Shown here piece by piece: positions 2,102 through 32,710 of a stretch of 64,000 nt of DNA; position 1 is the stretch's first letter; each line of letters opens with the position of its first letter. The notes beneath the pieces are model-generated. The model was given only the letters and a program-made list of their open reading frames with translations, had not been told where the DNA came from and ran no database searches. This DNA is from Ilumatobacter sp. GTDB lineage: Bacteria > Actinomycetota > Acidimicrobiia > Acidimicrobiales > Ilumatobacteraceae. Location: positions 62,001 to 126,000 of the forward strand of contig NZ_JASJCS010000001.1 in assembly GCF_030065885.1 (NCBI RefSeq), in the 5' to 3' direction. The position numbers and the translations under genes were made by a program.

Positions 2102-3130
2102 ATGCACGACGAGGTGCTCGCCAGGTGCCGGGCCGCGCTGCCCGGCTGGCGCGAGCTCACCGTCGCCGACGTCGAGTTCGACGCGCCGAAGGGATTCTCG
2201 TCGTTCACGATGGGCGTCCGACCGCTGGTCGCCGTCGATCCACCGGCGGTGCTGTACCGGCACCTCGCCGGCAAGGAGAACGCGATCCTCGACGCCGCTG
2301 CCGAGCGCGACGTGTTCCTGCTGCTCGGCGAACATCACATCGCGGCGCACTGCTACCACGCCGACGACGTCTGCCGGATCGAGGAGTTCTACACGGGCCG
2401 CACGCTGACCGCCGACGACCTCACCGACCACGAGGTCCTCGGCAAGATCGCCGACCAGCTGTACCGGTTCCACCAGATCGAACCGGGCGGTCTCCCGGCA
2501 CCGACCTTCTTCGAGCTGCTCCACGCGAGATGGGGTCCGATGGCCCGCTCGGTGCTCGACGACCGGCGCGACGAGTTCCCCGCCGACGAGCGGGCCCTGT
2601 GCGACGACCTCACCGAGATGCTCGCCGATCGGACGCTCTCCATGGTGCTGCGATGCCTCCCCGACCCGGTCGAGCGGCCGCCGGTGTTCTGCCACAACGA
2701 CACCTACCACGGCAACGTGATGCTGCTGACCGACGGGTCGATCAGGCTGCTCGACTTCGAGTTCTCGTGCCGCAACCACGTGGCGTTCGACTTCGCGAAC
2801 CTGTTCGCCGAGACGGTCATGGTGCACGGCCTCGCCGACCCGCCCCACTTCACGATCGGCGACCCCGCGTACACCGACGACGACATCGGCGCGCTCGTCG
2901 GGGCCTACCTCGACAACGCCGGGTTCGCGACCTCGGCGGCCCGCGCAGCCGAGCACCGTACGCTCGTCGACCAGACACGCCGGGCGATCATGCTCTCGGA
3001 CTACATGTACGCCATGGCCGCGCTGCCGCTCGCGCTGCAACCGATCCAGAAGATCCGGTTCCTCCCGTACGCCCACCGGCGGTTCCACCGGTTCCTCGAC
3101 TCGTGGCAGCGCGAGTTCGGGAACCACTGA
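2102..3130 (+). CDS. Aminoglycoside/choline kinase-like phosphotransferase
   Basis: This 342-residue protein belongs to the eukaryotic-like small-molecule kinase superfamily (APH/choline kinase). It shows the catalytic loop FCHNDTYHGNV and, about 25 residues later, LLDFEFSCRNHVAFDFANL, which supplies the metal-binding Asp. The pattern of DFEF, an intervening N and a FDFANLF-like segment resembles choline/ethanolamine kinases more than drug kinases. A lysine in GKENAI (about residue 60) fits the nucleotide-binding region. The ATG at 2102 is preferred over an in-frame start at 2054 because homology-like sequence begins after it. The substrate cannot be read from the sequence. It is convergent with the hydrolase gene at 3185. 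Confidence 0.75.
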   Translation: MHDEVLARCRAALPGWRELTVADVEFDAPKGFSSFTMGVRPLVAVDPPAVLYRHLAGKENAILDAAAERDVFLLLGEHHIAAHCYHADDVCRIEEFYTGRTLTADDLTDHEVLGKIADQLYRFHQIEPGGLPAPTFFELLHARWGPMARSVLDDRRDEFPADERALCDDLTEMLADRTLSMVLRCLPDPVERPPVFCHNDTYHGNVMLLTDGSIRLLDFEFSCRNHVAFDFANLFAETVMVHGLADPPHFTIGDPAYTDDDIGALVGAYLDNAGFATSAARAAEHRTLVDQTRRAIMLSDYMYAMAALPLALQPIQKIRFLPYAHRRFHRFLDSWQREFGNH

Positions 3131-28614: not shown

Positions 28615-29088
28615 TCAGAGCAGCTCGGGGACGACCTCGGCGACGTCCTCGGGCGTCGTCGGCGGGGCGAACCGCCGCACGATGTTGCCCTGCCTGTCGA
28701 CGAGGAACTTCTCGAAGTTCCAGGTGATGTCTGGGCTGTCACCGTCGCCCGGCTGGGCGGCCTTCAGCATCGTGTAGAGCGGCGCTTCGTCGGCGCCGTT
28801 GACGTCGATCTTGGCGAACATCGGGAAGTCGACGTCGAACTCCGACGTGACGAACTCGAGGATCTCGGCCTCGGTGCCGGGCTCTTGCCCGGCGAACTGG
28901 TTGCACGGGAACCCGAGCACCTGCACGTCGTCGAACTGGTGGTGGAGCGCACGCAGACCTGCGTACTGGGGGGTGAGGCCTCAACGGCTGGCGACGTTGA
29001 CGATGAGGAGCACCTGGTCGCGGAACCGGTCGAAGTCGACCTGCTCGCCGGTGATGCTCGTCATCTGGAGGTCGTAGATCGATGACAT
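28615..29088 (-). CDS. Selenocysteine-containing glutathione peroxidase
   Basis: A 157-residue glutathione peroxidase read through one in-frame TGA (28983-28981), the catalytic residue U36. The frame before it ends NVASR and continues with GLTPQYAGLRALHHQFDD, exactly the family pattern NVAS(K/R)-U/C-GLTPQY. The rest of the catalytic set is present: Gln in FPCNQFAGQEPG and Trp-Asn in ITWNFEKFLVD. The start ATG (29088) gives the normal length. Immediately after the TGA lies a hairpin with the fdhF-like GCAGGTCTGC tip. A normal annotation would split or truncate this gene. It reduces peroxides in the cytosol, and it needs SelA, SelB, SelC and SelD elsewhere in the genome. Divergent from the kinase gene. 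Confidence 0.9.
28949..28966 (-). promoter_or_regulatory. Bacterial SECIS element in the glutathione peroxidase mRNA
   Basis: On the minus strand, 14 nt after the TGA, a GUACGCA/UGCGUGC stem (one GU pair) carries a GGUC loop. The top GCAGGUCUGC is identical to the tip of the E. coli fdhF SECIS, recognised by SelB. The loop starts 21 nt after the UGA, within the range for bacterial SECIS elements. The element is inside the coding sequence. Confidence 0.85.
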
Positions 29089-29159
29089 GGAGCGTGACCC
29101 TACCGGCCGGTGGTGGTGTTCTCGCCGAGCGGCGAACCGCCGCTGGGAGATCGGCCAAG

Positions 29160-29792
29160 ATGTCGGACGTGACCACCGAGCGCCGCGTGTTGGGGATCGT
29201 CGGATGCCCCGGGTCGGGCAAGTCGACACTCGCAGCAGGGCTCGCCGCCGAACATCCCGAGACGTCGGTCGTCGTGCCGATGGACGGGTTCCACCTCGCC
29301 CAGCGCGAGCTGTTCCGGCTGGGGCGGATGAACCGCAAGGGTGCGCCCGACACGTTCGACCTCTTCGGGTACCTCGCCTTGCTCGAGCGGATCCGGACCT
29401 CGCGCGACCAGATCGTCTACGCACCCCGGTTCGATCGCCACACCGAGGAGCCGATCGCCAACGCGATCGCCATCGAGCCCCATCACACGACGATCATCAC
29501 CGAGGGCAACTACCTGCTCCACAGCGGCGAGGGGTGGGAGCGAGTGCGGCCGCTGCTCGACGAGTGCTGGTACGTCGACTGCGAGTACTCGGCCCGCATC
29601 GTCCGGCTGATCGCTCGTCACATCGAGCACGGCAGGACCGGTGCTCAGGCCGCAGCGTGGGTCCACGATGTCGACGAGCCGAACTCGAGGATCATCCGGG
29701 CGGGACTCGAGACCGCCGACGTCGTCATCCGCTCCGAGGACGGCCGCCTCGCGTTCCCCCTCCCACCCGACTGGCGCACCCCCTGGTGGTAG
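29160..29792 (+). CDS. Nucleoside/nucleotide kinase-like P-loop protein
   Basis: A 210-residue P-loop kinase related to uridine kinase, pantothenate kinase and phosphoribulokinase. It has GIVGCPGSGKSTLAAGL as Walker A, VPMDGFHLAQ as the substrate Asp loop (as in PanK and uridine kinase), RKGAPDTFDLFGYL, and ITEGNYLL as Walker B. In family members that phosphorylate a small alcohol or sugar, this PMDGFH motif is standard. The substrate is not known from context; fructose or nucleoside is possible. The ATG at 29160 is preferred over 29082, which would start inside the divergent promoter. It is followed by two palindromes before the MazG-like gene. Confidence 0.82.
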   Translation: MSDVTTERRVLGIVGCPGSGKSTLAAGLAAEHPETSVVVPMDGFHLAQRELFRLGRMNRKGAPDTFDLFGYLALLERIRTSRDQIVYAPRFDRHTEEPIANAIAIEPHHTTIITEGNYLLHSGEGWERVRPLLDECWYVDCEYSARIVRLIARHIEHGRTGAQAAAWVHDVDEPNSRIIRAGLETADVVIRSEDGRLAFPLPPDWRTPWW

Positions 29793-30423: not shown

Positions 30424-30924
30424 ATGTCTATGTTCATCGTCATCGGCGTCGTCGGGGCGGTGCTCCTGTTGTCGTCGCTGCTGTTCGACGACCTGATCGA
30501 CGGTCTCGTCCCCGACCTCGACTTCATCTCCGGTCCGGTCATCGGGGCCTTCCTGGCCGCGTTCGGGCTGTTCGGCTGGTTCGTCGGATCCGGCCTGGAG
30601 GCACCGCTGTTGCTCGCAGGTGTGGTGGCGATCGGCGGCGGCATCGTCTTCGGGGCGTTCACGTTCCGGCTCACCATGGCGTTGATCAACCAGCCGACCG
30701 ACGCGACGCCGACGACCGCGTCGCTCGTCGGCGCTTCGGGCAAGGTCGTCACGCCGGTCCGCGCCGACAGCATCGGTGAGGTCCTCGTGCTGCTGGGTGG
30801 CGCCTCCACGAAGTACACGGCGACCGCCGATACCGACCTGCCGACCGGCGCCTCGGTCGTCGTGATCGCCGTCGAGTCGCCGACCAAGGTCCGCGTCCAG
30901 GCCGAGGCGGAGTTCTGGACGTGA
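30424..30924 (+). CDS. NfeD-like membrane protein
   Basis: A 166-residue protein with three or four TM segments (about residues 3-22, 37-57 and 62-85), followed by a soluble OB-fold domain (about 105-165, LVGASGKVVTPVRADSIGEV). This is the short NfeD1b/YqiJ type that accompanies flotillins. NfeD-flotillin pairs organise membrane microdomains and membrane protein quality control. Its stop overlaps the GTG start of the His-rich repeat gene by 4 nt, and the flotillin follows in the same way. The start ATG at 30424 is clear; a further ATG (MFIV) lies two codons later at 30430. Confidence 0.85.
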   Translation: MSMFIVIGVVGAVLLLSSLLFDDLIDGLVPDLDFISGPVIGAFLAAFGLFGWFVGSGLEAPLLLAGVVAIGGGIVFGAFTFRLTMALINQPTDATPTTASLVGASGKVVTPVRADSIGEVLVLLGGASTKYTATADTDLPTGASVVVIAVESPTKVRVQAEAEFWT

Positions 30925-31193
30925 CCAACTCGTCCCGAACCGCCGACGTCCACCACGACATCCGCCCGGTCGAGCACATCGCCGACCACGACCTCCGCCC
31001 CGCCGAGCACATCGTCCACCACGATCACCGCCCCGCCGAGCACATCGCCCACCACGACCACCGCCCCATCGAGCACATCGTCCACCACGACCACCGCCCC
31101 GTCGAGCACATCGTCCACCACGACATCCGCCCGGTCGAGCACATCGTCCACCACGACATCCACCACCCCAGCTCCATCGAAAGGACACCATGA
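30921..31193 (+). CDS. His-rich 11-residue-repeat protein between NfeD and flotillin
   Basis: A 90-residue protein with no recognised domain. After a 10-residue leader come six units of 11 residues with consensus HHDxRPxEHI(A/V) (residues 11-76) and a partial seventh, then SSIERTP. More than a quarter of residues are His, with Asp and Glu, so binding of Zn, Ni, Co or Cu is plausible; there is no signal peptide or TM segment. The GTG start overlaps the nfeD stop by 4 nt and its own stop overlaps the flotillin ATG by 4 nt (ATGA), so all three are coupled. Function is inferred only: it may link metal state to the membrane complex. An alternative is a non-functional DNA repeat expansion that happened to stay in frame. 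Confidence 0.65.
   Translation: MTNSSRTADVHHDIRPVEHIADHDLRPAEHIVHHDHRPAEHIAHHDHRPIEHIVHHDHRPVEHIVHHDIRPVEHIVHHDIHHPSSIERTP
30951..31148 (+). repeat. 33-bp in-frame tandem repeat, six units
   Basis: Six 33-bp units encode the 11-residue repeats. They differ mainly at codons 4 and 7 (His/Ile/Leu and Ala/Val/Ile), while CACGAC and GAGCACATC blocks are conserved. Exact 3-nt phase over all units suggests coding constraint. Repeat number may vary between strains. Confidence 0.8.
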
Positions 31194-32710
31194 GCCCCGT
31201 CGTCGTCTTCCTGATCGTGATCGCAGCGCTGCTCGTCTCGATCGTCGTGCTCATCGCCAGCCGCTTCAAGGTCGCGGGCCCCAACGAGGCCTTCATCGTG
31301 ACGGGGCGGAAGGGCAAGGCGGTGACGAACCCCGAGACAGGTGCGATCAGCACCGACCTCTCGGGCCAGAAGGTCGTGATGGGTGCGAGCACGTTCGTGC
31401 TGCCGGTCGTGCAGAAGCTCGCCGTGCTCGATCTGTCGTCGCGCCAGATTGCGATCTCGGTCGGCTCGGCGGTGTCGGCGCAGGGCATCAAGTGCTCGCT
31501 CGAGGGCGTGGCGATCGTGAAGGTCGGCGGCACCGAGAACGCGATCCGGGCGTCGGCGCAGCGGTTCCTCGGGCAGCAGAACGAGATCGAGCCGTTCACC
31601 CAGGAGGTGCTCGCCGGCTCGCTCCGGGCGATCGTCGGCCGGCTCTCGGTGGAGGAGATCATCAAGGACCGCGCCGCGTTCGCACGCGAGGTCGCCGAGG
31701 AAGCCGAGTCGTCGCTGACCAACCAGGGGCTCGTGCTCGACACGTTCCAGCTCCAGGACATCCAGACCGAGGGCAACTACCTCAAGGACCTCGGGCGCCC
31801 CGAGGCGGCACGCGCCGAGAAGGAGGCGTCGATCGCCGAGGCCGAGGCCCGCCGGCAGTCCGAGGAGGCGCGCCTCAAGGCCGAGGAGGAGATCGCGATC
31901 GCGAACCGCGAGCTCGAGCTGCGCAAGGCCGAGATCCTCGCGGAGACCGATGCAGCAGCTGCCGACGCGCAGGCGTCGGGTCCGCTGGCGAAGGCCGCCA
32001 AGGACCAGGAGGTCATCGCGGCGCAAGAGCTGGTCGCCGAACGCGTCGCGGCGCTCAAGGAGCGCGAGCTCGACACCGAGGTCCGCAAGCCGGCTGACGC
32101 CGAGCGGTACGCGGTCGAGCAGCGGGCCGAGGCCGAGAAGACCAAGCGCGTCCGCGAGGCAGAAGCCGCCCGCATCGCGTCGATCGAGGCCGCGCAGGCG
32201 CACGCCGAGGAGGACCGGCTGGTCGGTGCCGGCGAACGACAGCGCCGCGAGGAGCTGGCCAAGGCGATCGAGCTCGAGGGCCAGGCCAAGGGTGCCGCCG
32301 AGCGGGCGCAGCGCGCCGCGGCGGCGGAGGCGCTGCAGTTGGAGGGTGACGCCGAGGCAGCCGCGATCCTCGCCCGCGGCGACGCGGAGGCAACGGCGAT
32401 GGAGAAGAAGGCCGAGGCCTACGAGCAGTACGGCCAGGCGGCGATCCTCGACCTGCTCGCCGACATGCTGCCCGAACTGGTGAAGGAGGCCGCTGCGCCG
32501 CTGTCGGCGGTCGACAAGATGACCGTCATCTCGACCGATGGCGCCAGCCAGATCACCAAGAACGCTGCGCAGAACGTGACCCAGGGGCTCGAGCTCGCCA
32601 GCGATCTGCTCGGCGTCGACCTGGCCGACATGTTCAAGAACTTCGCCAACCAACAGGCCGGCGAGATCGCCGCCACCGAGATCGGCGCCGCCACCAACGG
32701 CGACGAGTGA
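31190..32710 (+). CDS. Flotillin (SPFH domain) protein
   Basis: A 506-residue flotillin. A TM or re-entrant hydrophobic segment lies at residues 3-22, an SPFH domain at about 28-200 (GPNEAFIVTGRKGKAV opening, then strand-rich sequence), and a long coiled coil of Glu/Ala/Lys/Arg heptads at about 200-420 with repeated EAxARR and AAAEAxxLEGDAEA units. The C-terminal 60 residues are a flotillin tail. Flotillins oligomerise and build membrane microdomains with NfeD partners, here the two genes upstream. The ATG overlaps the stop of the His-rich repeat gene. Confidence 0.92.
   Translation: MSPVVVFLIVIAALLVSIVVLIASRFKVAGPNEAFIVTGRKGKAVTNPETGAISTDLSGQKVVMGASTFVLPVVQKLAVLDLSSRQIAISVGSAVSAQGIKCSLEGVAIVKVGGTENAIRASAQRFLGQQNEIEPFTQEVLAGSLRAIVGRLSVEEIIKDRAAFAREVAEEAESSLTNQGLVLDTFQLQDIQTEGNYLKDLGRPEAARAEKEASIAEAEARRQSEEARLKAEEEIAIANRELELRKAEILAETDAAAADAQASGPLAKAAKDQEVIAAQELVAERVAALKERELDTEVRKPADAERYAVEQRAEAEKTKRVREAEAARIASIEAAQAHAEEDRLVGAGERQRREELAKAIELEGQAKGAAERAQRAAAAEALQLEGDAEAAAILARGDAEATAMEKKAEAYEQYGQAAILDLLADMLPELVKEAAAPLSAVDKMTVISTDGASQITKNAAQNVTQGLELASDLLGVDLADMFKNFANQQAGEIAATEIGAATNGDE

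What the first reader, a model, noticed from the sequence alone, without database searches (positions are those of the whole stretch)
28615..29088. Selenocysteine glutathione peroxidase with in-frame UGA
The sequence shows one in-frame TGA (28983-28981) at the exact catalytic position of glutathione peroxidase (NVASR-UGA-GLTPQY), and conserved protein sequence continues in the same frame to a normal stop. The remaining catalytic residues (Gln, Trp, Asn) are intact. Sec-containing GPx is rare in bacteria, and automatic annotation would split or truncate the gene.
Basis: partly seen in the sequence, partly recalled or inferred. Interest (0 to 1): 0.88.

Follow-up and report, generated by a model that had tools for sequence, protein, structure and literature searches.

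The report
Selenocysteine glutathione peroxidase in an actinobacterium
This gene most likely makes a peroxide-destroying enzyme that carries selenium at its active site, read through an in-frame UGA codon; the enzyme type is already known in bacteria, but here it belongs to a lineage of actinobacteria.

Summary
The finding stands. Window 29088-28615 (-) is a 157-codon GPx gene with TGA (28983-28981) at the peroxidatic position. The genome has selA, selB, selD and tRNA-Sec, each over its cut-off. Of 110 aligned GPx rows, 29 (28 distinct) have TGA there and 81 have TGC/TGT. A hairpin with a GGUC loop follows the UGA; its codons CAG-TAC-GCA-GGT-CTG are identical in the 28 distinct Sec genes, and GCAGGTCTG is in 0 of 81 Cys genes. 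E. coli fdhF has the same tip. In a 296-genome class sample, 17 of 17 TGA-GPx genomes have selA, against 47 of 110 other GPx genomes.

Bacterial Sec-GPx is a published family, so this is a new member. The less expected part: 29 of 29 Sec rows lack the resolving cysteine that 79 of 81 Cys rows keep, probably one evolutionary event. The genome has mycothiol-type genes below curated cut-offs and no PF02955 glutathione synthetase hit. A Sec-based mycothiol peroxidase is possible but untested. No protein evidence exists.

The parts
28615..29088 (-). gpx gene, 157 codons including Sec, plus terminal TGA
28981..28983 (-). in-frame UGA, Sec codon 36, peroxidatic position
   Evidence: aligned codon in 110 rows
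28949..28966 (-). bSECIS-type hairpin GUACGCA-GGUC-UGCGUGC, 7 bp, tetraloop 28959-28956, 21 nt between UGA and loop
28885..28887 (-). codon of Gln68, catalytic tetrad (tetrad recalled; place from the alignment to yeast HYR1)
   Evidence: Gln in 29 of 29 Sec and 81 of 81 Cys rows
28849..28851 (-). codon of Val80, in place of the resolving Cys of two-centre GPx (role recalled)
28717..28722 (-). codons of Trp123-Asn124, catalytic tetrad (recalled)
   Evidence: both in 29 of 29 Sec rows

Best explanation
The gene encodes a selenocysteine glutathione-peroxidase-family enzyme. Translating ribosomes meet UGA at codon 36. SelB, carrying GTP and Sec-tRNA(Sec), is held by the hairpin at 28966-28949 with its GGUC loop and delivers Sec instead of letting the chain terminate. 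The selenolate, set in the Sec-Gln-Trp-Asn site, reduces H2O2 or organic hydroperoxides. Because the protein has no Cys at the resolving position 80, the selenenic acid is most likely reduced by an outside thiol, plausibly mycothiol/mycoredoxin or thioredoxin. Shown here: the gene, the UGA, its conservation, the hairpin and its coding-independent conservation, and the Sec machinery genes. Inferred: actual Sec insertion, peroxidase activity and the reductant.
For: GPx family match. selA (402 bits), selB (277 bits), selD (377 bits) and tRNA-Sec (66.6 bits, gathering score 47; ARAGORN SeC(tca)) in the own genome, with selA and selB adjacent. Codon 36 is TGA in 29 and TGC/TGT in 81 of 110 aligned rows. 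Codons 41-45 do not vary at synonymous positions in the 28 distinct Sec sequences. Among codons with at least 85% conserved amino acid, mean codon entropy is 0.24 (7 codons in 41-48) against 0.95 (51 others), Mann-Whitney p 0.002; in the 81 Cys rows 1.51 (4 codons) against 1.30 (43), p 0.87. Apical decamer identical to that after the Sec UGA of E. coli fdhF. Two further UGA genes, selD and an fdhA-like gene, with loops starting GGUC in the same genome. selA in 17 of 17 TGA-GPx genomes against 47 of 110 other GPx genomes, Fisher p 2.6e-6; against all 296 genomes the hypergeometric p is 0.001. selA also in the genomes of all 12 TGA loci from genome contigs, a set that overlaps the class sample.
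Against: No protein evidence. The hairpin is not unusually stable by energy alone (46 nt: z 0.33, 124 of 200 shuffles fold as well; 71 nt: z 0.03, 97 of 200). No Rfam match in the window at gathering thresholds. In my hairpin scorer 3 of 28 Sec sequences are weaker than -5 kcal/mol (two of them, L108 and L109, printed: only the upper 4 bp pair), and 50 of 81 Cys rows also hold some hairpin of the model's shape, 16 of them at -5 or lower. The GCAGGTCTGC decamer is not enriched in this genome: 16 sites against 39 for the reversed control. The selA test does not correct for relatedness. MshA and MshC matches lie below their cut-offs, and the MshC model rings in all 14 control genomes, so the reductant is open.
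Confidence: 0.95

Rival explanations
1. The UGA is a true stop from a sequencing error or pseudogenisation, and the gene is dead.
For: Fragmented assembly, 200 contigs, 5.06% contamination.
Against: The same codon is TGA in 28 other rows, three of them in single-contig genomes; tetrad residues are intact in 29 of 29; synonymous sites of the hairpin do not vary.
Confidence: 0.01
2. UGA is decoded as Cys or Trp, or by plain read-through, without selenium.
For: None found; considered because UGA recoding exists elsewhere (recalled).
Against: The terminal codon of this very gene is TGA. The Sec machinery is present. The invariant hairpin sequence is in the 28 distinct UGA genes and its GCAGGTCTG core in 0 of 81 Cys genes.
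Confidence: 0.03
3. It is a Sec-GPx, but a thioredoxin-dependent rather than mycothiol-dependent one (a variant of the best explanation on the reductant).
For: Non-vertebrate Cys-GPx work with a second redox centre holding a resolving Cys (PMC5981252, passage), a design usually served by thioredoxin (recalled); nothing here excludes thioredoxin as donor.
Against: Position 80 is not Cys in 29 of 29 Sec rows.
Confidence: 0.4

Closest known systems
Bacterial Sec GPx family (PF00255, UxxT; WP_010957027.1 in PMC13188914 and PMC9312934; Treponema denticola Gpx in PMC1794560)
   Same: PF00255 family; Sec in a U-x-x-T motif (here U-G-L-T); UGA with an in-gene hairpin of bSECIS shape.
   Different: Different phylum: Actinomycetota, class Acidimicrobiia inferred from the nearest named records. 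I did not align it with the published sequences.
Cys-type GPx / mycothiol peroxidase (MPx) of actinobacteria (PMC9241694, passages)
   Same: Same protein family; Gln, Trp and Asn of the site; host with mycothiol-type genes (below cut-offs).
   Different: Sec in place of peroxidatic Cys; no resolving Cys at position 80 (79 of 81 Cys rows have it).
Vertebrate Sec GPx (PDB sequence hits 2obi, 2f8a and others)
   Same: Sec with a single redox centre (for vertebrates: PMC5981252 passage).
   Different: Hairpin inside the coding region; no PF02955 glutathione synthetase hit in the genome.
E. coli fdhF SECIS
   Same: GCA-GGUC-UGC apical hairpin after the UGA.
   Different: 21 nt between UGA and loop here, 18 nt in fdhF (counted); the rest of the stem differs.

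Membership tests
Glutathione peroxidase family (PF00255) | Profile match over the domain | tested here: met
   128.2 bits, cut-off 27, residues 4-109
Glutathione peroxidase family (PF00255) | Sec/Cys-Gln-Trp-Asn active site (recalled) | tested here: met
   U36, Q68, W123, N124
NCBIfam GPx equivalogs (NF007900, TIGR02540) | Score over the curated cut-off | tested here: not met
   178.1 against 270 and 111.9 against 207.3 bits; so family member, not these equivalogs
Glutathione peroxidase family (PF00255) | Peroxidase activity with glutathione | not testable with these tools
   No assay; no PF02955 hit in the own genome
Bacterial selenoprotein | In-frame UGA at a site that is Cys in homologues | tested here: met
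   29 TGA and 81 TGC/TGT of 110 rows
Bacterial selenoprotein | bSECIS: loop 3-9 nt, stem 4-16 bp, G in first two loop positions, 16-37 nt from UGA, MFE -7.5 or lower (PMC13188914, section 5) | tested here: met
   Loop 4 nt, stem 7 bp, GG, 21 nt, -9.9 kcal/mol for the window; 3 of 28 Sec sequences have weaker stems
Bacterial selenoprotein | selA, selB, selC, selD in the genome | tested here: met
Bacterial selenoprotein | Selenium in the protein | not testable with these tools
   Needs 75Se or mass spectrometry
Mycothiol peroxidase | Mycothiol biosynthesis in the host | tested here: inconclusive
   MshA-like 392.4 bits (cut-off 462.5) and MshC-like 424.5 bits (cut-off 485.1), both below cut-off; MshC model rings in 14 of 14 control genomes, over the cut-off in 1
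Mycothiol peroxidase | Reduction by mycothiol/mycoredoxin | not testable with these tools
   Needs enzymology

The most novel reading that the evidence does not exclude
Acidimicrobiia hold a distinct clade of one-centre selenoperoxidases that lost the resolving cysteine around the time they took up Sec, and that use mycothiol where animal Sec-GPx use glutathione: a selenium-dependent mycothiol peroxidase. Two gammaproteobacterial members (L031, L032) later went back to Cys, or never gained Sec, while keeping the one-centre design.
Probability: 0.3. Interest if true: 0.55.

Novelty: new member of a known kind. Interest (0 to 1): 0.36.

Why it matters
It places Sec-GPx in a group of actinobacteria where gene callers that stop at UGA will truncate it. 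It offers a natural comparison of Sec one-centre and Cys two-centre peroxidases within one class. The link seen here between Sec and a missing resolving Cys makes the question of what selenium buys a peroxidase testable in bacteria.

Tried and rejected
Sequencing error or pseudogene, and general UGA reassignment, were rejected. Fold energy of the hairpin alone did not separate it from shuffles, and hairpins of the model's shape occur in 50 of 81 Cys rows too, so the case rests on codon conservation and the fdhF match. A scan of the own genome for GCAGGTCTGC found 16 sites (reversed control 39); within the 34 nt upstream that I looked at, only the GPx site had a TGA in the bSECIS spacing range. 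Gene neighbourhood did not help: of 8 window neighbours searched in 28 TGA loci (many with only about 1.5 kb of flank), kinase and NfeD-like hits came in L104, MazG-like in L103 and L104, and a weak amidase hit in L049. No structure prediction was run. Whether the Sec rows form one clade apart from L031/L032 is not settled: the free tree leaves them unresolved inside the 31-row set with 3 label changes, and holding the Sec rows together is not rejected (p-AU 0.533). A first script for this printed the exceptions at position 80 and then failed on a group label; it was rerun.

Of the class sample only the best 30 loci were fetched; one is the window's own gene, and 29 of them plus 80 plus the window make the 110 rows. 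The other class GPx were not checked at position 80. One class hit with 2 TGA (G078, 40% identity) was left out of the 17 and not examined. The selA list (201 genomes) was copied rows with hits weaker than 1e-50 dropped; itself reports 200 over the cut-off. The own genome is 90.7% complete, so absences in it (second GPx; PF02955) are provisional, and other glutathione routes were not searched.

Papers: PMC1794560, PMC9312934, PMC9241694 and PMC5981252 were seen as passages only; PMC13188914 as passages and its section 5. Searches for Ilumatobacter with selenocysteine, Acidimicrobiia with selenocysteine, and mycothiol with selenocysteine and GPx returned 1, 1 and 10 papers, none opened; this does not show that the clade is unpublished.

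Full report
What is there. On the minus strand, 29088 to 28615, an ATG-started frame of 157 codons ends in TGA and holds one internal TGA, codon 36 at 28983-28981. Read through, it is a GSHPx-family protein; the best PDB sequence match is yeast HYR1, 3cmi. Mechanical ORF calling breaks it in two. A divergent kinase ORF (29082-29792 by mechanical start) lies upstream, and a weakly matched GDSL-lipase-like ORF (below Pfam cut-offs) follows on the same strand. No second GPx was found in the genome.

Sec machinery. The own genome (G000, 5.0 Mb, 200 contigs, 90.7% complete) has selA with selB directly next to it, selD, and a tRNA-Sec that both Infernal and ARAGORN recognise. The 12 other tRNA-Sec model hits in the genome lie below the gathering score. 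selD carries its own in-frame TGA, which I read from the DNA as HGAG-U-ACK. A molybdopterin oxidoreductase carries TGA in GTNNIDSCNRT-U-HAPSVVGL, which I take for the FdhA Sec site (site recalled). In both, the predicted hairpin after the UGA has a loop starting GGUC, 32 and 18 nt from the UGA (my count on the folds).

Conservation of the UGA. Of 110 aligned rows (window, 80 from genome contigs, 29 from the class sample), 29 have TGA at codon 36 and 81 have TGC or TGT; 28 of the 29 are distinct in the compared stretch. The 12 TGA genes among the 80 from genome contigs come from records titled as Actinomycetota or groups within it, among them Ilumatobacter and Acidimicrobiales. In 296 sampled genomes of the class, 127 have a GPx match, 17 with one TGA. 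All 17 have selA, against 47 of the other 110 (Fisher p 2.6e-6; hypergeometric p 0.001 against all 296; relatedness not corrected). The genomes of the 12 genome contigs TGA loci also have selA; that set overlaps the class sample.

SECIS. The hairpin GUACGCA-GGUC-UGCGUGC (28966-28949) meets the constraints of the published bSECIS model. It is not unusually stable against shuffles, and hairpins of that general shape are also found in 50 of 81 Cys rows. What marks it is sequence: CAG TAC GCA GGT CTG is the same in the 28 distinct Sec genes, although where the same amino acids occur in Cys genes their codons vary; 0 of 81 Cys rows hold GCAGGTCTG near the site. Codon entropy in codons 41-48 is 0.24 against 0.95 elsewhere in Sec genes, with no fall in Cys genes. 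E. coli fdhF has the same GCAGGUCUGC tip 3 nt closer to its UGA. Stems vary: in 3 of 28 Sec sequences the continuous stem is weak.

Redox design. Gln68, Trp123 and Asn124 are kept in 29 of 29 Sec rows. Position 80, the resolving Cys of the Cys homologues (role recalled from yeast HYR1/Gpx3; alignment), is Val, Ala or Ile in 29 of 29 Sec rows and Cys in 79 of 81 Cys rows. The two Cys exceptions, L031 and L032, fall with the Sec rows in one strongly supported set of 31 (support 100/99). Their genomes have selA, and L031 keeps TACGCAGGTCT, which may be a relic of the hairpin or chance codon use. That fits Sec-to-Cys reversion, but a tree with all Sec rows together is not rejected (p-AU 0.533), so loss of the resolving Cys before Sec gain fits as well. 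Since loss of the resolving Cys maps to one branch, its link with Sec is about one event, not 29.

Reductant. The genome has MshA-like and MshC-like genes below their curated cut-offs (the MshC model also rings in all 14 control genomes) and no PF02955 hit. GPx-annotated proteins of actinobacteria are described as mycothiol peroxidases (PMC9241694, passages). A one-centre Sec enzyme needing an outside thiol, plausibly mycothiol, is the inference; thioredoxin is not excluded.

Novelty. Sec-GPx in bacteria has been listed since 2006 (PMC1794560) and is in current tables as UxxT (PMC13188914, PMC9312934). This is a new member, in a lineage for which three narrow searches gave no evident description (none of the 12 listed papers was opened).

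Noticed in passing
L011 about 2386-2388 (-), G000:C37: selD of this genome is itself a UGA gene (HGAG-U-ACK) with a GGUCG-loop hairpin 32 nt downstream.
   Followed up: partly
L149, G000:C187:32041-33312 (-): fdhA-like molybdopterin oxidoreductase with an in-frame TGA (GTNNIDSCNRT-U-HAPSVVGL) and a GGUCU-loop hairpin.
   Followed up: partly
L031, L032: Two GPx from gammaproteobacterial MAGs with Cys at the site but no resolving Cys, inside the Sec set; L031 keeps part of the hairpin sequence. Possible Sec-to-Cys reversions or pre-Sec relatives.
   Followed up: partly
G115 and G161: Genomes that carry both a TGA GPx and a GPx without stop.
   Followed up: no
G078:C88:27828-28262: Distant GPx match with two in-frame TGA codons; may be a pseudogene, a misalignment or something else.
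   Followed up: no
window 31190-32707 (+) and 30424-30921 (+): Flotillin-like gene next to an NfeD-like gene, both matches below curated cut-offs; no link to the GPx seen.
   Followed up: no
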